DNA from: Mycobacterium sp. | GTDB lineage: Bacteria; Actinomycetota; Actinomycetes; Mycobacteriales; Mycobacteriaceae | Reading direction: 5' to 3' | Length of the DNA stretch: 64,000 nt | NCBI GenBank assembly: GCA_011620645.1 | Contig: WOYS01000110.1 | Coordinates: 29,774-93,773 of the forward strand | In this document: piece by piece, positions 15,887-28,977 of the stretch | How positions within the stretch are numbered: position 1 is the stretch's first letter | Layout of the letters: each line of letters starts with the position of its first letter | Notes under the pieces: generated by a model | The model's database searches: none | What the model was told of the DNA's origin: nothing | What the model saw: the letters and a program-made list of their open reading frames with translations, nothing else | Made by a program: the position numbers and the translations under genes

Positions 15887-17734
15887 ATGGATACGGTCAG
15901 TGACACGCTCACATCGAGCGTTGGGGGAACACGCGTCGATCGCGACGTGGTGAACAGGTTCGCGACCTGTTGTCGATCGCTGGGCTTATCGGTCAACGAC
16001 CGGCAGCGTCCGGCGGACCTGGCCGCGGCGCGGTCGGGGTTCACCGAGCTGACCCGCATCGCCCGTGAACAGTGCGACGCCTGGATCGGCCTGGCCGCCG
16101 CCGGGGCGGGCACCGCGGACAACTCAGGCCGTGTCATCGCCACCATCTGGCGCACCAAGGCCACCTTCGGGATGCTGACCCGCGAGATCGACCTGGGCAC
16201 AGACGATCTCGGATTCACCTATGACACCGGTCTGTACCTGCAGTTCCGGGCGACCGACCGCGACGATATCGCGCTGGCCTATGCCGCTATGCTCGCCGAG
16301 GCCGGCGAGTTCGCCGACGCTGATCAGCTCCTTGAGGAACTGATCTCGCGCCGGCCGACGTGGCTGCAGGCCCGCTGGGTGCGGGTCGCCACCTACCACC
16401 GCAGCCGGCGCTGGTCCGACGTGGTGCGCACGCTCACCCCGGTGGTCAATGACCCCAAACTCGACGGGCATTACGCGCATGCGGCCCGGGTCACCCTGGC
16501 CATCGCGCTGGCAAGCCTGGGCATGTTCGCTCCCGCGCTGTCGCACCTGGAGAACCCGGAGGGTCCCGTCGCGGTGGCCGCCGTCGATGGCGGACTGGTG
16601 AAGGGCCTGTGCCTGCGCGCGCAGGGCGAGGACGACGAGGCCGCCGACGTGCTGGCCGAGCTCTACGCCGCGAATCCCGAGTATCTCGGGGTGGAAGAGG
16701 CGCTGTCCGACAGGTCATTCGGGCTCGACACCACCACTGCCGCGCGGATCGAAGCACGCAGCAACCCATGGGACCCCGCGACAGAGCCGGGGGAGTCGGA
16801 CTTCGTCGATCCCGGTGCCAAGGAGCGCAAGGCCTACCTGCTCATCGAGGCCGAAGCCGAACTCGCCGAGTTCATCGGCCTGGAAGAGGTGAAGTACCAG
16901 GTCGCTCGCCTGAAAAGCTCGGTGGCGATGTCGATCCGGCGCCAAGAGCGCGGGCTGACCGTCGCTCAGCGCGCCAACCACCTCGTCTTCGCGGGCCCGC
17001 CCGGAACCGGCAAGACCACGATCGCCCGTGTTGTCGCCAAGATATATTGCGGACTCGGCCTTTTGAAGAAGGAAACGGTGCGCGAGGTGCACCGTGCCGA
17101 CCTGATCGGCCAGCACATCGGCGAGACCGAGGCCAAGACCAACGCCATCATCGACAGCGCACTCGACGGCGTGCTGTTCCTCGACGAGGCGTATGCCCTG
17201 GTGTCCACCGGCGCCAAGAACGATTTCGGGCTGGTCGCCATCGACACACTGCTGGCGCGCATGGAGAACGACCGTGACCGGCTGGTCGTGATCGTCGCCG
17301 GGTACCGGGCCGATCTCGACCGCTTCCTCGACACCAACGAGGGTCTGCGGTCCCGCTTCACCCGCAGCATCGACTTTCCCTCCTACAGCGCACCGGAACT
17401 CGTCGAGATGGCGACCCGGATGGCAGAGAAGCGCGACAGCGTCTTCGAACAGGTCGCCCATGGCGAGATGGAAGCGCTGTTCGCCCATCTGGCGGCCAGC
17501 ACCACGCCGGATGCCACCGGCACCGCCCGGCGCAGTCTCGATATCGCCGGTAACGGTCGATTCGTGCGAAACCTTGTCGAGCGTTCCGAAGAGGAACGCG
17601 AATACCGATTGGACCACTCCGATTCCGACGACTTCACCGACGAAGAATTGATGGCCATCACCGCCGATGACGTGAACCGCTCGGCGGCCCCACTGCTGCG
17701 CGGGCTGGGATTGTCGGTGCCCGGCGATGGCTGA
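15887..17734 (+). CDS. eccA3: ESX-3 secretion AAA+ ATPase EccA3
   Basis: The 615-residue cytoplasmic ATPase has an N-terminal TPR-like helical domain (about 1-300; RFATCCRSLGLSVNDRQRPA, MFAPALSHLENPEGPVAVAA) and a C-terminal CbxX/CfxQ-type AAA+ domain. Walker A is FAGPPGTGKTTIARVVAKI at about residue 370, Walker B is VLFLDEAYALV at about 427, and sensor/arginine-finger segments follow (NEGLRSRFTRSIDFPS). Family knowledge: EccA recognises or releases Esx and PE/PPE substrates before export. The sequence closely follows Rv0282 in motif order, including the ending PLLRGLGLSVPG. It overlaps eccB3 by eight bases, showing operon organisation. Confidence 0.95.
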   Translation: MDTVSDTLTSSVGGTRVDRDVVNRFATCCRSLGLSVNDRQRPADLAAARSGFTELTRIAREQCDAWIGLAAAGAGTADNSGRVIATIWRTKATFGMLTREIDLGTDDLGFTYDTGLYLQFRATDRDDIALAYAAMLAEAGEFADADQLLEELISRRPTWLQARWVRVATYHRSRRWSDVVRTLTPVVNDPKLDGHYAHAARVTLAIALASLGMFAPALSHLENPEGPVAVAAVDGGLVKGLCLRAQGEDDEAADVLAELYAANPEYLGVEEALSDRSFGLDTTTAARIEARSNPWDPATEPGESDFVDPGAKERKAYLLIEAEAELAEFIGLEEVKYQVARLKSSVAMSIRRQERGLTVAQRANHLVFAGPPGTGKTTIARVVAKIYCGLGLLKKETVREVHRADLIGQHIGETEAKTNAIIDSALDGVLFLDEAYALVSTGAKNDFGLVAIDTLLARMENDRDRLVVIVAGYRADLDRFLDTNEGLRSRFTRSIDFPSYSAPELVEMATRMAEKRDSVFEQVAHGEMEALFAHLAASTTPDATGTARRSLDIAGNGRFVRNLVERSEEEREYRLDHSDSDDFTDEELMAITADDVNRSAAPLLRGLGLSVPGDG

Positions 17735-19277
17735 CCAGAACGCCGAGGACCGCCGCGAGTTCACCTCGCGCACACCGGTCAATGAGAACCCCGAGCGCGT
17801 CGTCTACCGACGCGGCTTCGTCACCCGCCATCAGGTGTCGGGCTGGCGATTCATGATGCGGCGCATTGCATCTGGTGTCGCTCTGCATGACACCCGGATG
17901 CTTGTCGACCCGCTGCGCACCCAGAATCGCGCGGTGCTCGTCGGTGCCCTCGTGTCGGTGACCGTCGTCGCGGGCTGCTTCGTGTTCTCACTCATCCGGC
18001 CAGGCGGTGATGCCGGCAGTTCGACCATCCTGGCCGACCGCGACACCTCCGCGCTGTACGTGCGAATCGGCGACGTGGTGCATCCGGCGCTCAACCTCAC
18101 TTCGGCCCGGCTGATCGCCGACGCGGCCGATAACCCGACCACGGTCAAGAGCAGCGAGATCGACAAGTTCTCCCGCGGCAACCTGATCGGCATCCCCGGC
18201 GCTCCGGAACGCATGGTGCAGAACACATCCCGAGATGCCAACTGGACGGTGTGCGATGCGGTGTCCGGCAACGCCGTCGGGGTCACCCTGATCGCAGGTA
18301 CCCCGGACGAGCAGGGTGAGCGGGCGGCCACCTTGCCGTCGGACCGAGCCGTACTGGTGCAGAACGTCGGCGGCGTGCACTCCGGCACCTGGCTATTGTG
18401 GAATGGCAAGCGCAGCCCCATCGATCTGGGCAACCGGCCTGTCACCGACGCCCTCGGCCTGGATACCGACATCCCAGCGCCGCGGATCATCGCGCCCGGG
18501 CTGTTCAACGCCATCCCGGAATCCGCGCCCCTGGTCGCCCCGGCCCTGCCCGGCGCCGGTGAACCGCCGCGCTTCGAGTTGCCGGTGCCCGCTCCGGTCG
18601 GAGCCGTGGTAGCCGCCTACGAAGCCGACAACACCATCCGCTATTTCGTGGTGCACGCCGACGGTCTGCAGCAGGTGTCACCGGTGCTGGCCTCGATCCT
18701 GCGCAACTCCAATTCCTATGGGCTGCAGCAGCCGCCGCGACTCGGTGCCGATCAGGTGGCGAAGCTTCCGTTGGTCGGTGGCATCGACACCGGTGCCTAC
18801 CCGACGGATGAGGTCAGCCTGGTCGAAACCGGCCCGGCGCCGATCACCTGCGCCTACTGGTCCAAGCCCGCTGATGCGACCGAGAGCAGGCTGAGCCTGC
18901 TGATCGGTGCGGCGCTGCCGCTGCCCGAGGGACTGCAGACCGTGAGCCTGGTGGGCGGCGGTGCCGGGTCCACCGCCGATCGTGTTGCGCTGACGCCCGG
19001 CAGCGGATACTTCGTCCAGTCGGTCGGGTCCGACGCCGGTGCACCGCCGACCGGGTCGGCCTTCTGGGTCAGCGACACCGGTGTGCGCTACGGCGTCGAT
19101 ACCTCCGGTGATGGCAAATCCGTTGCTGCACTGGGTCTGACACCGCCGCCGCTGGCAGTGCCGTGGTCGATGCTCACCCAGTTCGCAGCCGGTCCCACTC
19201 TTTCCAGGGTCGATGCGCTCGTAGCGCATGACGCCGTGGCGTCCGCGGTCGCGTCCGGCCGTGAGGGAGAAAACTGA
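17727..19277 (+). CDS. eccB3: ESX-3 membrane core component EccB3
   Basis: The 516-residue protein has a cytoplasmic N-terminus of about 65 residues containing the family motif [20 protein letters not shown] followed by LHDTRML, one transmembrane helix (about 66-90, [20 protein letters not shown]), and a large periplasmic domain made of R repeats. Two Cys in the periplasmic part ([15 protein letters not shown]) are in the positions of the conserved disulfide. EccB forms the periplasmic part of the type VII membrane complex together with EccC, EccD and EccE. It is translationally coupled to eccC3 through a TGATG overlap. Confidence 0.95.
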
Positions 19278-22200
19278 TGAGTCGCTTGATCTTCGAGGCT
19301 CGCCGCCGGCTGCCGGCACCGGAGGCGCGCAAGGGCACCATCACCATCGAGGCGCCGCCGTCGCTGCCCCGGTTGGTGCCGCCGTCATTGCTGCGCCGTG
19401 TGCTGCCCTACCTGATCGTCATCCTGATCGTCGGCATGATCGTCGCGCTCTTCGCGACCGGTATGCGGATGGTCTCCCCGACGATGCTGTTCTTCCCGTT
19501 CGTGCTGTTGCTCGCGGCAACGGCGCTCTACCGCGGTTCCGACAACAAGCTGCGCACTGAGGAAGTCGACGCCGAACGGGCCGACTACCTTCGCTATCTC
19601 TCGGTGGTCAGGGACAACGTTCGGGCACAGGCCGCCGATCAGCGTGCGGCACTTGAGTGGTCGCATCCGGAACCGGATCTGCTCGCCGCCGTGCCCGGCA
19701 CCCGCCGGCAGTGGGAACGCGATCCGCGCGACAGTGACTTCCTGGTGGTGCGGACAGGTCTGACCGATGTGCCGCTGAACACCGCGCTGCGTGTGAAGGA
19801 CGCCGCCGACGAGATAGACCTGGAACCGGTGGCACACACCACCCTTCGCGGCCTGCTGGACGTGCATCGCACCGTGCGTGATGCGCCGACCGGAATCGAC
19901 CTGGGCAAGGTCTCGCGCATCACCGTGCTCGGTGAAGCCGACGAGGTTCGGGATGCGCTGCGTGCCTGGGTAGCCCAGGCCGTCACCTGGCATGACCCCG
20001 CGGTGCTGGGCGTGGCCCTGGCCACCCCTGATCTGGAGTCGCCGGACTGGGCATGGCTGAAGTGGCTGCCGCACACCGATGTACCCGGTAGATCCGACGG
20101 TGTCGGCCCGGCCCGCTACCTGGCGACGACCGCCGACGGGTTGCACGGTCTGCTGGCACCGGCGCTCGATGAGCGCGATGCCTTCAGCGGTAGCGCGCTG
20201 GCATCGGGCAAGCACCTGCTGGTGCTGCTGGACGACCCGGATGCAGACCCCGACGCCGTCGTCGGCCGGACCGGCGCAGCAGGTGTCACCCTGATCTGCC
20301 GTTGCACCAAAGAACCCCACCGTGAACAGTATTCGGATCCCGAGCGGCCCATCCTCAAGGTGGCGGACGGCAGGATCGAGCGCTGGCAGAGCGGCGGGTG
20401 GCAGCCCTTTGTAAACACCGCGGATGCGTTCTCCGCCGCACAATCCTCACATCTGGCGCGCCGGTTGGCCCGCTGGGACACCAACCCGGAGCAGGCGCGC
20501 ATGGCCGCCACCGGTGCAACGACGTTCACCACGCTGTTCGGTATCCCGGATGCCTCGGCACTCGACGTGGCCAGCTTGTGGGCGCCGCGCAGCCGCGATG
20601 AGGAACTACGGGTGCCCATCGGCGTCACCGCGACCGGTGAACCACTGATGTTCGACCTCAAGGATGAGGCCGAAGGCGGTATGGGCCCGCACGGCCTGAT
20701 GATCGGTATGACGGGATCGGGCAAATCCCAGACCCTGATGTCGATCCTGCTGTCGCTGCTCACCACGCATTCGGCAGAGCGACTGATCGTGATCTACGCC
20801 GACTTCAAGGGTGAGGCCGGCGCGGACATATTCCGGCATTTCCCGCAGGTCGTCGCCGTCATCTCGAACATGGCCGAGAAGCGTTCGCTGGCAGATCGTT
20901 TCGCGGACACCCTGCGCGGCGAAGTCGCCCGCCGCGAGCTGCTGCTCAAGGAGGCGGGCCGACGCGTTCAGAACAGCGCCTTCAACTCGGTGACCGAGTA
21001 TGAGGGCGCGATCGCGGCGGGACACGACCTGCCGCCGATACCGACACTGTTCGTGGTCGCCGACGAGTTCACGCTGATGCTCGCCGAGCACCCCGAGTAC
21101 GCCGAGCTGTTCGACTACGTCGCCCGAAAGGGACGCTCGTTCCGGATCCACATCCTGTTCGCGTCCCAGACGCTGGATATTGGCCGCATCAAGGACATCG
21201 ACAAGAACACCTCGTACCGGATTGGCCTGAAGGTGGCCAGCCCGTCCATCAGCCGTCAGATCATCGGCACCGAGGACGCCTTCCAGATCGAATCCGGCCG
21301 CGAGCACAAGGGCGAGGGCTTCCTGGTCCCCGCACCCGGCGCGAACCCGATCAAGTTCCGCAGCACCTATGTCGACGGCATCTACGACCCGCCGCGCGCC
21401 AGTCACTCCGTGGTGGTGCATTCGTTGCCCGAGCCGCAGCTGTTCACCGCCGGTTGGGTCGAACCGGCACCGGACACCGTGCTGGTCACCGGTGAGTTCG
21501 AGGAGGTCCCGCCGCCGCGCAAGCTGGTCTCGACCATCGGCGACCAACTCGCCAACTACGGTCCACGGGCACCCCAGCTGTGGCTGCCTCCGCTCGAGGA
21601 GGCCATTCCGCTCATCGACCTGCTGGCGCGCGCCGAGATCGGCGAACGCACATGGCGCTGGCCGCTCGGTGAGATCGACAAGCCCTTCGAGATGCGACGC
21701 GATGCACTGGTGTTCGACGCCGGTACCGCCGCCGGCAACCTGCTGATCCACGGCGGTCCCAAATCCGGAAAGTCCACCGCCCTGCAGACATTCATGCTGT
21801 CGGCCGCTGCGCTACACGCCCCGGGCGATGTCAGCTTCTACTGTCTGGACTACGGCGGTGGGCAGCTGCGGGCCCTCGCGGATCTGGCACATGTCGGCTC
21901 GGTCGCGACACCGCTGGAGCCCGAACTCATCCGGCGCACCTTCGCCGAGCTCGAACAGCTGCTGCGGGCACGCCAGGAGAGCGGGGCACGATCAGGTTCG
22001 GGCGGCTACCAGGACGGCTACGGCGAAGTCTTCCTGCTGATCGACAACCTGTACGCGTTCAGCCGCGACAACGTCGACACCTTCAACACCCGCAACCCGC
22101 TGCTGGCCCGGGTCACCGAGCTGGTCAACGCCGGTCTGTCCTACGGCATCCACGTCGTGATCACCACCCCGAACTGGCTCGAGGTACCGCTGGCCATGCG

Positions 22201-23233
22201 CGACGGCCTCGGACTGCGCCTGGAGCTCAAGCTCAACGACTCCCACGACAGCAATGTCCGGGTCGTCGGCGCGCTGACCCGGCCGGCCGACAGCGTGCCC
22301 GCAGACCAGCCGGGACGCGGCCTGACCATGGCCGCCGAACACTTCCTGTTCGCCGCAACGGATCTGCGCGATATCGCCGTCATCAACTCGCGTCACCCCG
22401 GCGAGCACGCCCCGGCGATTCGCCTGCTGCCGACTCAGCTCTCGCCGGAAACTGTCGGCCGGATCTATGTCGGGCCCGAACAGGTCGTCATCGGGCAACG
22501 CGAGGAAGACCTGCGGCCGGTGGCCATCGACTTCGCGCGCAACCCGCTCATGATGGTTTTCGGTGACAGCAGGTCAGGCAAGACCACCCTGCTGCGGCAC
22601 GTGATCCGCTCGATCCGGGACAACTCCACCGCCGAGCAGGTCGCGTTCACCGTCATCGACCGGCGCCTGCACCTGGTCGAGGAGCCGTTGTTCCCCGACA
22701 ACGAGTACACCCCGAACATCGACCGGATCACCCCGGCGATGCTGGGCCTGTCCGCCCTCATCGAGAAACGTCGACCGCCCGCGGGATTGTCGTCGGAGGA
22801 TCTGCGCCGCTGGAGCTTTGAGGGTCAGACGCACTACCTGATCATCGACGACGTCGACCAGATCCCGGACGGTCCCGCGGTCAGCGGGCCCTACGCCGGT
22901 CAGCGGCCGTGGAGTCCGCTGCTCGGTCTGCTGGCCGAGGCCGGTGACCTGGGTCTGCGGGTCATCGTCACCGCCAGGGCCAGTGGATCGGCCCACGCGG
23001 TGATGACCGCGCCGCTGTTGCGCCGACTCAATGATCTGCAAGCGACTGTCGTGATGCTGTCGGGTAGTCCGGCCGACGGTGGCAAACTCCGCGGCCACCG
23101 CTTCAGCAGGCTGCCCGCGGGCCGGGCGATGCTGCTCGGTGACAGCGAAGAGGCAACCTACGTCCAACTGGTGAATCCGCTCGTCCCCGAAGGCGTTTCA
23201 CCTGCAAGTTCCAACGGAAAGGAATACAGCTGA
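19277..23233 (+). CDS. eccC3: ESX-3 FtsK/SpoIIIE-type ATPase EccC3
   Basis: The 1318-residue motor protein is encoded as one chain, as in other ESX-3 systems. It has two transmembrane helices near residues 35-90, a DUF domain, and three FtsK-like ATPase domains with P-loops at about residues 475 ([10 protein letters not shown]), 826 ([11 protein letters not shown]) and 1095 ([11 protein letters not shown]). The first domain has [20 protein letters not shown] and the Walker [11 protein letters not shown]. EccC recognises the YxxxD/E signals of Esx and PE substrates and powers export. The coding sequence is intact. The PE gene starts inside its stop codon. Confidence 0.95.
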
Positions 23234-23544
23234 TGACTCTAAGGGTGGTCCCTGAGGGACTGGCGGCTGCCGGCTCGGCAGTCGAGGCCCTGATCGCGCG
23301 GCTTGCCGCCGCCCATGCTGCTGCGGCACCGCTGGTGAACGTCGTGGTACCACCGGCCGCCGATCCGGTGTCGCTGCAGACGGCAGCCGGCTTCAGCGCC
23401 GCCGGCAACGAGCACAGCGCCGTGGCCGCACTGGCCGTGGAGGAACTGGGCCGTGCCGGTGTGGGTGTCGCCCAGTCCGGTACCAGCTACGCCACCGGCG
23501 ACGCGCTGGCCGCATCGACCTACCTGATGGCGCGCGGCGGCTGA
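23233..23544 (+). CDS. pe5: PE-family protein (PE5-like) of ESX-3
   Basis: The 103-residue protein is a minimal PE domain: [20 protein letters not shown] carries Pro-Glu at residues 7-8, then two long helices and the C-terminal secretion signal [11 protein letters not shown], a YxxxD motif. PE5 normally forms a heterodimer with PPE4, which docks on EspG3 and is exported by ESX-3 during iron acquisition. Here the downstream PPE gene is almost entirely deleted, so PE5 has no local partner. The start overlaps the stop of eccC3 (TGATG). It could still pair with a PPE protein encoded elsewhere. Confidence 0.92.
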
Positions 23545-23545
23545 C

Positions 23546-23815
23546 ATGACCGGTCCCGTCTGGATGGCACTGCCACCCAACCACGCCTTGCACGGCGCAT
23601 CGGCCGCTGGCGAGCATCGCGCCGGCAGGCACGCCGACCGCCGCTCCCTCAGGCGCACCTGCTTCGGCAACGGACCGACCAACCCCATGCTGCCGGGCTC
23701 CTGGAGCCCCGACGATCCGTCGGCGCCGGAGGGGGGGAAGGCACGACTGAACGCTCCCTGCAAAACCCAGATCGCTTCGACTGACCACAGATCCAACCGA
23801 AAGGAAATTCCATGA
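23546..23815 (+). pseudogene. ppe4: PPE4 remnant: start codons and C-terminal tail joined, core deleted
   Basis: The frame opens MTGPVWMALPP, the signature start of PPE4 (which continues with PEVHSALL in intact homologues), immediately after PE5. From about 23580 the homology breaks off and a short low-complexity stretch follows, then PMLPGSWSPDDPSAPE, which looks like a PPE C-terminal tail. The PPE core, including the WxG helical hairpin and the EspG-binding tip, is absent: about 90 codons remain out of a normal several hundred. A run of seven G at 23731-23737 may also shift the frame; with one G fewer the reading would end soon after (GGRHD, stop). The frame as it stands runs through the esxG ribosome site and stops inside esxG. 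Confidence 0.82.
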
Positions 23816-24105
23816 GCATGCTTGACGCGCACATCCCCCAGCTGGTCGCCTCGGAATCGGCGTTCGGCGCCAAGGCTGCCCTGATGCGCAGCACCATCGC
23901 CCAGGCCGAGCAGGCCGCCACGGCTTCGCAGGCATTCCACATGGGCGAGTCCTCGGCCGCGTTCCAGGCCGCACATGCCCGGTTCATCGAGGTTTCGGCC
24001 CGGGTCAATGGCCTGCTCGACATCGCCCAGGTCAACCTGGCCGACGCCGCAGGCACCTACGTCGCGCAGGACGCGGCGGCCGCCAGCACCTACACCTCCA
24101 TCTAA
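23812..24105 (+). CDS. esxG: ESX-3 secreted WXG100-family protein EsxG
   Basis: A 97-residue WXG100-like protein starting MSMLDAHIPQLVASESAFGA. The turn between its two helices lies at FHMGESSAAFQ (EsxG proteins lack Trp here), and the C-terminal export motif is TYVAQDAAAAS (YxxxD). It forms a tight heterodimer with EsxH that is exported by ESX-3 and is needed for siderophore-dependent iron uptake in mycobacteria. An AAAGGAAA ribosome site precedes ATG 23812. The coding sequence is intact although the neighbouring PPE gene is not. Its stop codon lies inside a tandem 18-bp duplication. Confidence 0.93.
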   Translation: MSMLDAHIPQLVASESAFGAKAALMRSTIAQAEQAATASQAFHMGESSAAFQAAHARFIEVSARVNGLLDIAQVNLADAAGTYVAQDAAAASTYTSI

Positions 24106-24150: not shown

Positions 24151-24438
24151 ATGTCTCAGATCATGTACAACTACCCGGCCATGCTGGGCCTGTCGGCCGA
24201 GATGAATGGTTTCGCAGGTGCTTTGAGCGCAGTCGGCGCTGACATCGCCGCCGAGCAGGCCGCGCTGTCCGGAGCATGGCAGGGCGATACCGGTATGACC
24301 TACCAGGCCTGGCAGGCACAGTGGAACGCCAGCATGACCGAACTGGTACGTGCGTACCAGGCGATGGCGAGCACCCATGAGACCAACACCATGTCGATGA
24401 ACGCCCGCGACGCGGCCGAAGGCGCCAAATGGGGATAG
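24151..24438 (+). CDS. esxH: ESX-3 secreted WXG100 protein EsxH
   Basis: A 95-residue protein beginning [20 protein letters not shown] with the central WxG turn [20 protein letters not shown] and a helical C-terminus ending AEGAKWG. This is the TB10.4/EsxH family, partner of EsxG; the pair binds zinc through His/Glu residues in M. tuberculosis, and a His-Glu pair is present near the end (STHETNTMS). A GAGGAG ribosome site precedes ATG 24151. Followed directly, with no gap, by espG3. Confidence 0.93.
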
Positions 24439-25299
24439 ATGGCTGCTAATGCGGTCGAGCTGACCGTCGAGCAGGCCTGGTTCATCGCAGAAGAGGGTGG
24501 CTGCGGCTCGTTTCCATGGGTGCTGGCGATCACGCCGCCCTACAACGAGCAGGCGGCCACCGGTCGGTTCGCGGCCGATCGTGTCGCCGAGCTGACCGAG
24601 CTGGGGGTGATGTCCGATAGTAAGGTCATCAATCCCGCAGTCGCCCAGTGGATTCAGCAGACCTGCCGAGCTCGGACGTGGCTCGAATTACGAATTGTTG
24701 GCGTGTGCGGCGACATGCTGCGCGGCTTCGTCGCCCGCCATGACGACGTGTCGGTGGTCGCGCTGCGCAGTGGCGGCCTGGTGACGTTCACCGCCATGGA
24801 GCTCGTGGCACCGCATGACCTGGTGTCGGTACTGGTCGCCGGGCTGGCCGGGCGCCACGTGGCAACCTTCGACGATTTCACCGTACCCGTCCGAGCCGGG
24901 GCCCGCGCCGACGAGAAGCTACGAAACGGAGCTGAGTTGGCCGAAGTCCTTGAATACCTGTGTATTCCGGCCTCCGCGCGACCTGTCGTCGAGGCTCTGT
25001 TCACCGGCAGGCGCAGCTATGTCGAGATCGTGGCCGGCGAGCACCGGGACGGCCACCGGGTCAGTACCGAGGTCGGCGTCAGCATCGTCGACTCCGAGGC
25101 GGGCCGCATTTTGGTGAGCCCCTCGAAAGCCTTCGACGGTGAATGGGTGTCCACGTTCACCCCAGGGTCCGCGGCCGTCATCGCCGACGCGGTCGACAGA
25201 CTCATCGCAACACTGCCGCACGGATCGTGGTTTCCCGGCGCGCACCAGAACCTAGATTTCGACCAGAGAACGGAAGACCGATGCCCGACAACACTGTGA
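24439..25299 (+). CDS. espG3: ESX-3 PE/PPE chaperone EspG3
   Basis: The 286-residue cytoplasmic protein starts MAANAVELTVEQAWFIAEEG immediately after the esxH stop. It shows the EspG-type quasi-symmetric beta layout: GVMSDSKVINPAVAQWIQQT, LVTFTAMELVAPHDLVSVLV and RRSYVEIVAGEHRDG. EspG3 binds the hydrophobic tip of PPE proteins in PE-PPE dimers and keeps them soluble for export. With PPE4 lost, the retained EspG3 must serve PPE partners encoded elsewhere or be on its way to decay; no lesion is visible in it. It overlaps eccD3 by 19 bases. Confidence 0.92.
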   Translation: MAANAVELTVEQAWFIAEEGGCGSFPWVLAITPPYNEQAATGRFAADRVAELTELGVMSDSKVINPAVAQWIQQTCRARTWLELRIVGVCGDMLRGFVARHDDVSVVALRSGGLVTFTAMELVAPHDLVSVLVAGLAGRHVATFDDFTVPVRAGARADEKLRNGAELAEVLEYLCIPASARPVVEALFTGRRSYVEIVAGEHRDGHRVSTEVGVSIVDSEAGRILVSPSKAFDGEWVSTFTPGSAAVIADAVDRLIATLPHGSWFPGAHQNLDFDQRTEDRCPTTL

Positions 25300-26684
25300 T
25301 GCCGATCGTGCGGGTGGCCGTGCTGGCCGCCGGGGAGGGGCCCGCCGGTAGCGGCGGTGGACGGCTCACCGAGATGGCGCTGCCTGCCGAACTGCCGCTG
25401 CGCGAGATCATCCCGGCCGTACAGCGCACCGTGCTGCCCACCGGCGACACTCCCGCCCGGCTCAGCCTTGCGCCGATTGGCGGTGCGCCGTTCAGCCTGG
25501 ATGCAACCCTGGACACCGTCGGTGTCGTCGACGGTGACCTGCTTGCGCTGCAAGCGATCCCGACCGGCCCGTCCGCCCCGCGCATCATCGAGGACATCGC
25601 CGACGCCGCGGCCATCTTCTCCGCTGCCCGTGAGCGTCCCTGGGGGCCTGCGCAGATCCAGCGTGCCGCGGCCGCCGCCGTCATCGCGCTGATCCTGCTC
25701 GGCACCGCCCTCGCGACTGCCGTCCGGTTCGCCACAGGACATTCGGCGGCACTGTTCACCGTCGCCGGCATCGCCGCGGTCACCGTGGTTGCATCGTTCG
25801 CCACCCGGGCCCGTTTCCCGGGACTGGGCACCGCTCTGGCGGTCACCGCACTGGCCCCCGTCGCCGCGGCCTTCGCCGTCGCCGTACCCGGTGACTTCGG
25901 TGCCGCACAGGTACTACTGGCCGCAGCGGGTGTGGTGGCCTGGTCGGTGATCGGCATCGTCGTCTTCGAACGGGTCATCGCCACCTTCACGGCCGCGACT
26001 GTGCTCGGCCTCGGCGTGCTGCTGTCCGCCCTTCTCGCCACCATCTGGGACATGACCGATGTCCGCACCGGATCGGGTCTCATAGTGTTCGCACTGGTGG
26101 TGACCGTGCAGGCCGCCCGATTGTCCGCGCTGTGGGCACGACTGCCCGTCCCGACCATACCCGCTCCCGGTGACCCCACACCGTCGGCCCCGCCGCTGCG
26201 CGTGCTGGAGGATCTGCCGCGGCGGATCAGGGTCACCGATGCGCACCAGACCGGCTTCCTGGCCGCCGGTGTGCTGCTTTCGGTGACGGGTTCGCTGATC
26301 CTGGTCGGCTCGACCGGGACCTCGCCATGGACCTGGGTACTCGTGGTGGCCGCGGCGCTGGGTGCCACTCTGCGTGCGCGCGTGTGGGATTCGACCCCAT
26401 GCAAGGCATGGCTGCTGAGCCAGTCGTTCCTGCTGCCCGCCGCGCTGCTGGTTGTCTTCGCGCTCACCGACCGGTACGCAGCGGCCTGGTGGGCACTGGG
26501 CGCACTGGTGGCGGTCGTCGCCCTGTGGATCGTGGTCGCGCTCAGCCCGCGCATCGCATCGCCAGACACTTATTCGTTGCCCGCGCGTCGTCTGTTCGGA
26601 TTCGCGAGCTCCGCGGTCGACGCCTCGGTCATCCCGGCAGCCGCCTATCTGGTCGGCCTCTTCGAGTGGGTTCTCAACCGATGA
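25281..26684 (+). CDS. eccD3: ESX-3 membrane channel component EccD3
   Basis: The 467-residue protein has a ubiquitin-like N-terminal domain (about 1-95: VMPIVRVAVLAAGEG, LPAELPLREIIPAVQRT) and then eleven predicted transmembrane helices rich in Ala, Val and Leu. EccD subunits, two per protomer, line the type VII membrane pore. The ATG at 25281 (MPDNTVMPIV) has a GGAAG site before it and is chosen over an upstream frame start inside espG3. It overlaps mycP3 by ATGA. Confidence 0.93.
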   Translation: MPDNTVMPIVRVAVLAAGEGPAGSGGGRLTEMALPAELPLREIIPAVQRTVLPTGDTPARLSLAPIGGAPFSLDATLDTVGVVDGDLLALQAIPTGPSAPRIIEDIADAAAIFSAARERPWGPAQIQRAAAAAVIALILLGTALATAVRFATGHSAALFTVAGIAAVTVVASFATRARFPGLGTALAVTALAPVAAAFAVAVPGDFGAAQVLLAAAGVVAWSVIGIVVFERVIATFTAATVLGLGVLLSALLATIWDMTDVRTGSGLIVFALVVTVQAARLSALWARLPVPTIPAPGDPTPSAPPLRVLEDLPRRIRVTDAHQTGFLAAGVLLSVTGSLILVGSTGTSPWTWVLVVAAALGATLRARVWDSTPCKAWLLSQSFLLPAALLVVFALTDRYAAAWWALGALVAVVALWIVVALSPRIASPDTYSLPARRLFGFASSAVDASVIPAAAYLVGLFEWVLNR

Positions 26685-28066
26685 GACGCCGAAATCGCAG
26701 AAGCGCCGCCGCACTGGCGGCGGTTCTGGCGGTGGTAACCGTCGGCTGCCCGGCCGCCGGCGCGATCACCCCGCCCGAGGTGGACAGCGCCGCAACGCCC
26801 CCGCCGGGTACGGCGGGGGCGTTGCAGACTATGGCACAACGTGGGGCATGCACGGTGACCGGAGTGATTCCGGGTACCGATCCCGCTACGACCAGCCCGA
26901 ACCAGCAGGGGCTCGATCTGACCGAGGCCTGGCGCTACAGCCGCGGTGACGGACAGATCGTCGCGGTGATCGATACGGGCGTGCAACCGGGTCCGAGATT
27001 GCCCAACGTCGAAGCCGGCGGCGACTTCGTCGCCAGCACAGACGGCCTGACCGACTGCGACGGGCAGGGAACCATGGTGGCCGGACTCATCGCCGGTCAG
27101 CCTGGGGCGGAAGGCTTCTCCGGTGTCGCACCGGGAGCTCAGCTGTTGTCGATCCGGCAGACGTCGGCGAAGTTCTCGCCCAATCAGCCCGGTCAGGATC
27201 CGGTGATCGTGGAAGCCAACAATGATATCGCCACGCTGGCGCGCGCCGTGGTGCGCGCCGTCGACCTCGGCGCCACGATCATCAACATCTCGTCGGTGGC
27301 CTGCGTCCCGGCGAACACCGCGATCGACCAGTCCGCGCTCGGTGCGGCGTTGCGATACGCGGCGGTGGAGAACGACGTGGTGATCGTGGCCGCGGCAGGT
27401 AACACCGGCGGCGGCATCGCCGGCGGAACTGGTTGTGCGGCAAACCCGCTGACCGATCCGGCGCGGCCCGAGGACCCACGGAACTGGGCCGGCGTCACCT
27501 CGGTGTCGACACCATCCTGGTGGCAGCCCTACGTGCTGTCGGTCGGGGCGCTCAACCCGCTCGGACAGCCCGCGCCGTTCAGCATGTCCGGGCCCTGGCT
27601 CGGCCTGGCGGCACCCGGGGAAAACATCACCTCACTGAGCAACAGGCCCGACGGTGGACTGGCCAACGGACAACCCAACGACAAGGGCGAGTTGGCACCG
27701 GTCAGTGGCACCAGCTATGCGGCAGCGTATGTCTCCGGAGTTGCGGCGCTGGTACGCAGCCGCTTTCCGGAGCTGAGCGCGGAGCAGGTGGTGCGCAGGC
27801 TCACCATCACCGCACGCGGTGCGGATCGATCTCCGTCTTCACTGGTGGGCGCCGGAACCGTCGACCCAGTCGCCGCGCTGACCTGGGATGTGCCCGGTCC
27901 GGGCAGTCCCGCCGAGACCACCAAACCCGTTGCGGCTCCGCTGGAACCGGTGCAAGACGATCACACCGGGCGCAACGTCGCCTACATCGGTACCGGCGTG
28001 CTCGCATTGGCTGCCGCGTTGACCGCCGCGTTCGCCGCACACCGACGGAAGGACAAAGCCGCATGA
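26681..28066 (+). CDS. mycP3: Mycosin-3 (MycP3), subtilisin-like protease with catalytic His replaced by Gln
   Basis: The 461-residue protein has a signal peptide, a subtilisin-like domain and a C-terminal transmembrane helix (about 432-455). The catalytic Asp is at residue 98 (VIDTGVQPG), the oxyanion Asn at 241 (AAGNTGG) and the nucleophile at Ser345 (SGTSYAAAYVSGVAAL). The His box, which reads DCDGHGT in MycP3 homologues, reads DCDGQGTMVAGLIAGQ here: codon 129 is CAG, Gln. A subtilisin without the His should have little or no proteolytic activity. Mycosins also have a structural role as a cap of the type VII complex that does not need proteolysis, so the protein may still be useful. The rest of the gene is intact and in operon overlap with its neighbours. 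Confidence 0.93.
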   Translation: MRRRNRRSAAALAAVLAVVTVGCPAAGAITPPEVDSAATPPPGTAGALQTMAQRGACTVTGVIPGTDPATTSPNQQGLDLTEAWRYSRGDGQIVAVIDTGVQPGPRLPNVEAGGDFVASTDGLTDCDGQGTMVAGLIAGQPGAEGFSGVAPGAQLLSIRQTSAKFSPNQPGQDPVIVEANNDIATLARAVVRAVDLGATIINISSVACVPANTAIDQSALGAALRYAAVENDVVIVAAAGNTGGGIAGGTGCAANPLTDPARPEDPRNWAGVTSVSTPSWWQPYVLSVGALNPLGQPAPFSMSGPWLGLAAPGENITSLSNRPDGGLANGQPNDKGELAPVSGTSYAAAYVSGVAALVRSRFPELSAEQVVRRLTITARGADRSPSSLVGAGTVDPVAALTWDVPGPGSPAETTKPVAAPLEPVQDDHTGRNVAYIGTGVLALAAALTAAFAAHRRKDKAA

Positions 28067-28977
28067 CTGCCCGACTCGCCCTGGCCCTGCTGTTCATCGT
28101 GCCCGCGGCACTGGCATACCCGTACGAAACGCTGACCCAGCGCTGGGTTCTCGGCGTCGCGGTAGCCGTTGTGATCCTGCTATTCGCTTGGTGGCGTGGC
28201 GATTTCGCCACCACGAAGCTGGCTCGGCAATGGTCCATCTGGCGTGGCAATCACGCCACGGTAGGCTCCACCAAGGTGAGCTCCACCGAGGCAGGCGACA
28301 CCGCAACGGTGGTGTTGCGGCTCGACGACTCGGCATCCGTTGAGTTGCCGGTCGCCCTGATCGCAGGCTACGCGGACCGATACGGGCTGCGGTTGGATAA
28401 GGTGCGTATCACCAGTCGCGACCGGGCAGCGGAGCGTCGAAGCTGGATCACCCTGACCCTGGATGCAGCGCAGAATCTGCCCGCGCTGCAATCCCGTTCG
28501 GAGCGGATCCCGTTGCACGACACCGCCGATGTCACCGGCCGTCGGCTGGCCGACCACCTGCGCGAGAGCGGGTGGACGGTGTCGGTGCGCGAGGTTGTTC
28601 CGCGTCCGGTCTCGAGCGAGGCCAGGGAGACCTGGCGTGCGCTCACCGACGAGGCGGGATTCCTGACCGCATACCGCATTCCTGCCGCATCCCTGCCGTG
28701 GGTGCTGGACGCGTTGTGGTCGAACCCGACTGCCGAGCTTTGGACTGCGGTCGAATTCGGTCCCGATACGGTTACCGGGGCGGTCGCGGTGCGCTCGGCC
28801 GAGCTGCCCGCCGCCGACGCGCCCATTCCCGGGCTGGCCACGCTCGGTGGCCGTCAGCGCAGGGTGCTCGATGCACTGAATCCGGCATCTTCGCAACGTC
28901 TTCCAGGCCATCAGCCCGCCGACCCGGCGCTGGCCGGGAAGCTTCGCTGGCCGACAGGCACTGCCGTCAGAACATGA
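28063..28977 (+). CDS. eccE3: ESX-3 membrane component EccE3
   Basis: A 304-residue protein with two N-terminal transmembrane helices (LALALLFIVPAALAYPY and VLGVAVAVVILLFAWW) and a cytoplasmic domain. EccE sits at the periphery of the EccBCDE complex and stabilises it. The start ATG at 28063 overlaps the mycP3 stop (ATGA). It closes the ESX-3 operon; 110 bp separate it from the next gene, with no clear hairpin. Confidence 0.92.
   Translation: MTARLALALLFIVPAALAYPYETLTQRWVLGVAVAVVILLFAWWRGDFATTKLARQWSIWRGNHATVGSTKVSSTEAGDTATVVLRLDDSASVELPVALIAGYADRYGLRLDKVRITSRDRAAERRSWITLTLDAAQNLPALQSRSERIPLHDTADVTGRRLADHLRESGWTVSVREVVPRPVSSEARETWRALTDEAGFLTAYRIPAASLPWVLDALWSNPTAELWTAVEFGPDTVTGAVAVRSAELPAADAPIPGLATLGGRQRRVLDALNPASSQRLPGHQPADPALAGKLRWPTGTAVRT

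What the first reader, a model, noticed from the sequence alone, without database searches (positions are those of the whole stretch)
27062..27070. Mycosin-3 with the catalytic His replaced by Gln
The conserved DCDGHGT box of MycP3 reads DCDGQGT (codon CAG at 27065-27067, residue 129), while Asp98, Asn241 and Ser345 are all kept. A subtilisin without this His should be nearly inactive, so this would be a natural protease-dead mycosin whose retained role is structural. The gene is otherwise intact, so the change is not part of general decay.
Basis: partly seen in the sequence, partly recalled or inferred. Interest (0 to 1): 0.82.

Follow-up and report, generated by a model that had tools for sequence, protein, structure and literature searches.

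The report
Secretion-system protease that lost its catalyst
A protease built into a mycobacterial export machine has lost its key catalytic histidine here, and related species have repeatedly lost catalytic residues of the same protein while keeping the rest of it, which suggests that its lasting job is structural rather than cutting.

Summary
MycP3 (window 26681-28066, 461 aa) reads DCDGQGT with Gln129; Asp98, Asn241 and Ser345 are kept, the protease domain holds no histidine, and the frame is intact. The 11 closest relatives keep the His. Of 396 genus genomes, 21 carry Gln, Arg, Thr or Ser at this site, in MycP3-type mycosins. Of 141 MycP3s taken by DNA similarity alone, 16 lack Asp, His or Ser. 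Neighbouring motif residues stay invariant; dN/dS stays near 0.1. On a 171-row tree the triad state changes at least 14 times, 6 if all branches under 95 support are collapsed. Best reading: MycP3 repeatedly becomes a protease-dead structural cap of ESX-3. Also new: in this locus the substrate gene PPE4 is a deletion remnant. No activity was measured.

The parts
26681..28066 (+). mycP3, ESX-3 mycosin, 461 aa (signal-like N-terminus, S8 domain about 78-405, C-terminal hydrophobic helix)
   Evidence: TIGR03921; PF00082; signal and helix seen by eye in the sequence, not tested
27065..27067 (+). codon CAG, Gln129 at the catalytic His position of the DCDGHGT motif
26972..26974 (+). Asp98, catalytic Asp, kept
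27401..27403 (+). Asn241, oxyanion-hole Asn, kept
27713..27715 (+). Ser345, catalytic Ser, kept
17727..19277 (+). eccB3
19277..23233 (+). eccC3
23233..23544 (+). PE5 (PE family)
23546..23740 (+). PPE4 remnant: about the first 12 codons and a C-terminal tail; most of the gene is deleted
23812..24105 (+). esxG (WXG100 model matched below its cut-off; identified by 97% identity to relatives' EsxG)
24151..24438 (+). esxH
24439..25299 (+). espG3
25143..26684 (+). eccD3
28063..28977 (+). eccE3

Best explanation
This MycP3 is a naturally protease-deficient mycosin kept for its structure. In the ESX-5 complex a MycP trimer caps a periplasmic EccB dome and holds the membrane complex together, and laboratory protease-dead MycP1 and MycP5 still support secretion. 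By analogy, the fold of this MycP3 would still cap and stabilise ESX-3 while Gln129 removes the general base. It is one event in a recurrent trend: ESX-3 mycosins lose His, Ser, oxyanion Asn and, rarely, Asp again and again, while the rest of the protein stays under purifying selection. Shown here: the residue states, their recurrence, their focus on catalytic positions, and the selection on the gene. Inferred: loss of activity, the cap role in ESX-3, and that ESX-3 works in this organism.
For: His absent, and no other His in the domain. Frame intact, in an ESX-3 locus whose core genes are open. Window MycP3 dN/dS 0.11-0.16. 21 of 396 genus genomes carry a non-His MycP3-type mycosin; codons with first base not C and second base A occur in 0 of 396. 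Among 141 MycP3s taken by DNA similarity 16 lack Asp, His or Ser, 15 of 140 without the window. In those 141, positions 125-128, 130 and 131 never vary while 129 does; Gly240 never varies beside 241, nor Ala347 near 345. At least 14 triad changes on the tree; 11, 8 and 6 with branches under 80, 90 and 95 collapsed in the most favourable way. One 13-row clade is degenerate in every member. Degenerate pairs have median dN/dS 0.107 (n=11), intact pairs 0.082 (n=20). In 38 triad-deficient rows the 93 other near-invariant positions are broken in 64 of 3534 cells. Papers: MycP1 and MycP5 active-site mutants still secrete (PMC5082899, passages); a MycP5 trimer caps and stabilises ESX-5 (PMC8131196, passages).
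Against: No activity, secretion or structure was measured; the structure tool was off. Read support at the codon is unknown. Only the His is lost in this genome, so the loss could be recent and the dN/dS may mostly reflect the time before it. PPE4 is broken in the same locus, so ESX-3 may be losing functions in this lineage. M. smegmatis without mycP3 grew like wild type under low iron (PMC6389172, passages), so a need for the cap in fast growers is not proven. Degenerate pairs are slightly less constrained than intact ones.
Confidence: 0.72

Rival explanations
1. Early decay: ESX-3 of this small-genome lineage is being dismantled; PPE4 went by deletion and the mycP3 change is the first hit in a gene that is no longer needed.
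For: PPE4 remnant in the same locus; genome 3.98 Mb against 5.4-6.8 Mb in the 11 nearest relatives.
Against: The core ecc genes, esxG, esxH and espG3 are open and conserved; dN/dS of MycP3, EccD3 and EspG3 in window pairs lies in or near the range of pairs of relatives. Other degenerate ESX-3 loci mostly keep PPE4 (29 of 35 with the interval held), and one degenerate group has lasted long enough to form a diverged 13-row clade.
Confidence: 0.14
2. Residual or substrate-assisted catalysis: Ser345, Asn241 and Asp98 remain, and a substrate side chain or Gln lets the enzyme cut a narrow set of targets. (Recalled, not read: engineered His-less subtilisin can use a substrate His.)
For: The state here is DQNS, three of four residues kept; DQNS or DRNS occurs in 10 of 171 unique rows.
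Against: Other lineages have lost Ser and Asn as well as His (DQDG, DRDG, DTDG), which no serine catalysis would allow; no His elsewhere in the window's domain.
Confidence: 0.08
3. Sequencing or assembly error at one base.
For: Draft assembly, 128 contigs, 5.2% estimated contamination; sister species keep His; no second assembly of this species turned up in my searches.
Against: The same substitution recurs in other genomes, some held as single contigs. Fourteen triad changes over a tree length of 22.65 give about 0.05 expected on this tip of length 0.084, well above an ordinary per-base error rate (rough inference; no error rate was measured).
Confidence: 0.05

Closest known systems
MycP3 crystal structure 4KG7 (entry named only as an S8 peptidase; that it is M. 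smegmatis MycP3 is recalled)
   Same: Best-matching solved chain (E 1.7e-163), same motifs around the active site.
   Different: 4KG7 has DCDGHGT; the window has Gln at that position.
MycP1 of ESX-1 (4KPG, 4KB5, 4J94, 4HVL, 4M1Z)
   Same: Mycosin; needed for secretion while a protease-dead allele still secretes (PMC5082899, passages).
   Different: A substrate, EspB, is known for MycP1; the loss of activity there was engineered, here the residue loss is natural.
MycP5 of ESX-5 (7NP7)
   Same: Mycosin; its trimer caps the EccB5 dome and stabilises the complex (PMC8131196, passages); a protease-dead allele secretes (PMC5082899, passages).
   Different: Paralogs that I take for MycP5-type (5 of 44; label inferred from the Asp and the length) keep Asp, His and Ser and differ only at the oxyanion Asn, which is Asp.
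Pseudoproteases in general
   Same: Fold kept, catalytic residues lost, binding or structural role inferred.
   Different: Here the losses recur in one component of one secretion system within one genus, at different residues.

Membership tests
T7SS mycosin (TIGR03921) | Score above the curated cut-off of the family model | tested here: met
   387.8 bits, cut-off 278.75
ESX-3 mycosin (MycP3) | Encoded in an ESX-3 locus between eccD3 and eccE3 | tested here: met
ESX-3 mycosin (MycP3) | Groups with MycP3 rather than other mycosins | tested here: met
   about 56-90% identity to MycP3s, 44-47% to the genome's two other mycosins; one of a fully supported 12-row MycP3 clade
Active S8 serine peptidase | Catalytic Asp | tested here: met
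   Asp98
Active S8 serine peptidase | Catalytic His | tested here: not met
   Gln129
Active S8 serine peptidase | Catalytic Ser and oxyanion Asn | tested here: met
   Ser345, Asn241
Active S8 serine peptidase | Proteolytic activity | not testable with these tools
   needs an assay
Structural cap of a T7SS complex | Trimer binding EccB and stabilising the membrane complex | not testable with these tools
   read for MycP5 only (PMC8131196, passages); structure prediction was off

The most novel reading that the evidence does not exclude
ESX-3 mycosins as a group are on a repeated path from protease to pseudoprotease. No conserved ESX-3 substrate needs cutting, and losing catalysis may even be favoured (protease-dead MycP1 hypersecretes in ESX-1), so the catalytic residues are removed while the cap is kept. 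A diverged, fully degenerate MycP3 clade already exists.
Probability: 0.4. Interest if true: 0.75.

Novelty: new variant of a known kind. Interest (0 to 1): 0.64.

Why it matters
Whether mycosins matter as proteases or as scaffolds has been argued from a few engineered mutants of MycP1 and MycP5. Nature has run the experiment for MycP3 many times: intact genes without His, Ser or both, kept under purifying selection. That makes the question directly testable with natural alleles, suggests that MycP3 proteolysis is not a general requirement of ESX-3, and warns that annotating MycP3 as an active serine protease, or aiming active-site inhibitors at it, is unsafe for part of the genus.

Tried and rejected
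PPE4 loss as the cause of catalytic loss: rejected as a general rule. Among 35 loci with a changed MycP3 (two of them changed only at Asn) whose PE5-EsxG interval was held, 29 match PPE4 over 50% or more of a relative's length and 6 do not: the window, L224, L238, L043 and the compact duplicates L215 and L228. Five further loci (L225, L233, L235, L236, L237) are cut by contig ends and were left out. Nine of 9 intact loci with the interval held keep PPE4; L041 is cut.

Gene duplication as the cause: rejected for the window, where one MycP3 and three EccD were found. Of three genomes with two MycP3 copies, G022 has both copies DHDG; G018 has one DHDG and one changed only at Asn; G159 has one intact and one DRNG.

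Coupling of losses: Ser and Asn changes co-occur (22 rows with both, 4 with Ser only, 4 with Asn only), but independent pairs give a median p of 0.125; Ser and His changes show no coupling on the tree.

Uniqueness of MycP3 among mycosins: not absolute. Of 44 paralogs, 37 are DHNS, 5 have Asp at the oxyanion position, 1 (L282) has Asn in place of Ser, and 1 (L277) could be read only in part. The 44 are part of the paralogs listed plus those of this genome. I ran no test on 16 of 141 against 1 of 43.

Bias: rows found by DNA pattern are forced to keep the flanking DCD..GT bases, so flank invariance is claimed only on the 141 rows taken by similarity. Those 141 are of the 150 genomes listed, out of 389 with a match; 9 listed ones were not fetched. 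So 11% is the rate in the nearer part of the genus, not a genus-wide rate. The 171-row tree is a quick one with 60 open forks.

Structure model: not made, tool off. Wagner 2013 and van Winden 2019 on mycosin structure and specificity are not held, so an earlier mention of such losses there cannot be excluded. One script printed nothing because of a slip in its pattern and was repeated.

Full report
Observation. MycP3 starts with ATG at 26681, overlapping the end of eccD3, and ends at 28066. Residue 129 is Gln, codon CAG at 27065-27067, in DCDGQGT. Asp98, Asn241 and Ser345 are kept. The protein is a mycosin by its family model (387.8 bits, cut-off 278.75) and an S8 domain protein by Pfam. Its only histidines are at 428 and 454, outside the protease domain, so no other His in the domain could act as base.

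Surroundings. The locus is ESX-3: eccB3, eccC3, PE5, esxG, esxH, espG3, eccD3, mycP3, eccE3, all open. Between PE5 and esxG the closest relatives carry PPE4 of about 517 aa; here only about its first 12 codons and a C-terminal tail remain. In the genome three EccD proteins were found, so probably three ESX systems, and two PPE proteins over the cut-off elsewhere, one of which (contig C59) is 42% identical to a relative's PPE4. Three S8-domain mycosins were found; the other two keep His.

Nearest relatives. By MycP3 the window belongs with Mycolicibacterium frederiksbergense, M. neoaurum, M. bacteremicum and unnamed kin. In the tree it is one of 12 rows of a clade with support 100; the other 11 are all DHNS (Asp, His, Asn, Ser). 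The change is therefore derived in this lineage, or an error.

Recurrence at the His. A pattern scan of 396 genus genomes for DCDG followed by Gln found 7, the window included. A scan for codons whose second base is not A found 22 places in 21 genomes, of which 14 are MycP3-type mycosins with Arg (11), Thr (2) or Ser (1); the other 8 places are in unrelated frames or proteins. Codons whose first base is not C and whose second base is A: 0 of 396. A wider Gln pattern in 366 genomes found 6, all among the 7 already known. So 21 of 396 genomes have a non-His MycP3-type mycosin, and no other type of mycosin turned up. The patterns miss mycosins with altered flanking residues, and I did not count how many paralogs they covered.

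Other catalytic residues. I then took MycP3 from genomes in the order of DNA similarity to the window: 141 of the 150 listed, out of 389 with a match. Of these 141, the window included, 124 are DHNS, 17 are not, and 16 lack Asp, His or Ser; without the window 15 of 140. The states are DHDG (9), DQNS (2), DHNG (2) and one each of DRDG, DQEG, DRDS and DHTS. Over all 171 unique MycP3s, which include those sought by pattern and two second copies, 131 are DHNS and 40 are not, among them DQDG, DRDG, DTDG, DTDA, GHDG and GSDG. Before that count 14 duplicate rows and 11 loci that are not MycP3 were dropped, and 9 of 202 loci had no matching frame.

Focus on catalytic positions. In the 141 rows taken by similarity, positions 125, 126, 127, 128, 130 and 131 are the same in 141 of 141, while 129 is His in 136. 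Gly240 is the same in all while 241 is Asn in 128; Ala347 is the same in all while 345 is Ser in 128, the other 13 being Gly. Asp98 is kept in all 141. Positions 343 and 344, just before the Ser, do vary (130 and 127 of 141). In the 38 triad-deficient rows of the 171, the other 93 near-invariant positions are broken in only 64 cells of 3534. This is not the picture of a decaying gene.

Selection and history. Window against four relatives, MycP3 dN/dS is 0.11-0.16; four pairs of intact relatives give 0.07-0.15. Within degenerate groups the median is 0.107 (11 chosen pairs, range 0.05-0.21), within intact ones 0.082 (20 chosen pairs, range 0.03-0.13). The tree, built without the catalytic columns and two columns on each side, needs at least 11 changes at His, 12 at Asn, 11 at Ser, 2 at Asp and 14 for the triad. 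With branches under 80, 90 and 95 collapsed in the most favourable way, triad changes fall to 11, 8 and 6. A 13-row clade is degenerate in every member. Parsimony cannot tell gain from loss; one row there, L090, bears Ser.

Paralogs. Of 44 other mycosins, 37 are DHNS, 5 are DHDS (which I take for MycP5-type), 1 could be read only in part, and 1 (L282) has Asn for Ser. Loss of catalytic residues is thus mainly, not only, a matter of MycP3.

Mechanism. From passages: MycP1 and MycP5 are needed for secretion in M. marinum while their active-site mutants still secrete, the MycP1 mutant even more, and the complexes are not stable without the mycosin (PMC5082899; commentary PMC5156307, first of two parts read). 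In ESX-5 three MycP5 cap a dome of EccB5 and order the complex (PMC8131196). I infer the same for MycP3 in ESX-3. The ESX-3 structure paper does not use the name MycP3 in its main text (PMC6986878, passages). Against a strong need: M. smegmatis without mycP3 grew without major difference in low iron (PMC6389172, passages).

Novelty. I found no paper on natural loss of mycosin catalytic residues in searches for mycosin with MycP3, ESX-3 and catalytic, with pseudoprotease (none), with active site, loss and evolution, with catalytic triad and degenerate, for pseudoprotease with subtilisin and secretion system, nor in the listings for mycosin (40 of 134 listed) and MycP3 (30 of 44 listed). For most of these I saw only the listing. 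Only open-licence papers are held, and two key papers were not.

Verdict.

Noticed in passing
window 23546-23740: PPE4, neighbour of PE5 in ESX-3, is a deletion remnant here while the closest relatives keep it whole.
   Followed up: partly
whole genome G000: Genome of 3.98 Mb against 5.4-6.8 Mb in its 11 closest relatives by MycP3, at an estimated 100% completeness: possible genome reduction.
   Followed up: no
L215 (G022), L228 (G159): Compact second ESX-3-like loci with eccB, eccC, eccD, mycP and eccE but no match to PE5, PPE4, EsxG, EsxH or EspG3, each with a degenerate MycP3.
   Followed up: partly
L282 (G020): A mycosin that is not MycP3 with Asn in place of the catalytic Ser (GTNYAA).
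   Followed up: no
L022 (G016), L084 (G156): MycP3 with Gly in place of the catalytic Asp (VAVIGTG).
   Followed up: no
L043 (Segniliparus rugosus): ESX-3-like mycosin of another genus is DHDG, and no PPE4 match lies in its locus.
   Followed up: no
L040 and L224 (Mycobacterium tilburgii): MycP3 with Arg at the His position, next to a PPE4 matched over only 25%.
   Followed up: no
171 MycP3 rows: Asn241 to Asp and Ser345 to Gly tend to occur together (22 rows with both changed, 4 and 4 with one); the reason is unknown.
   Followed up: partly
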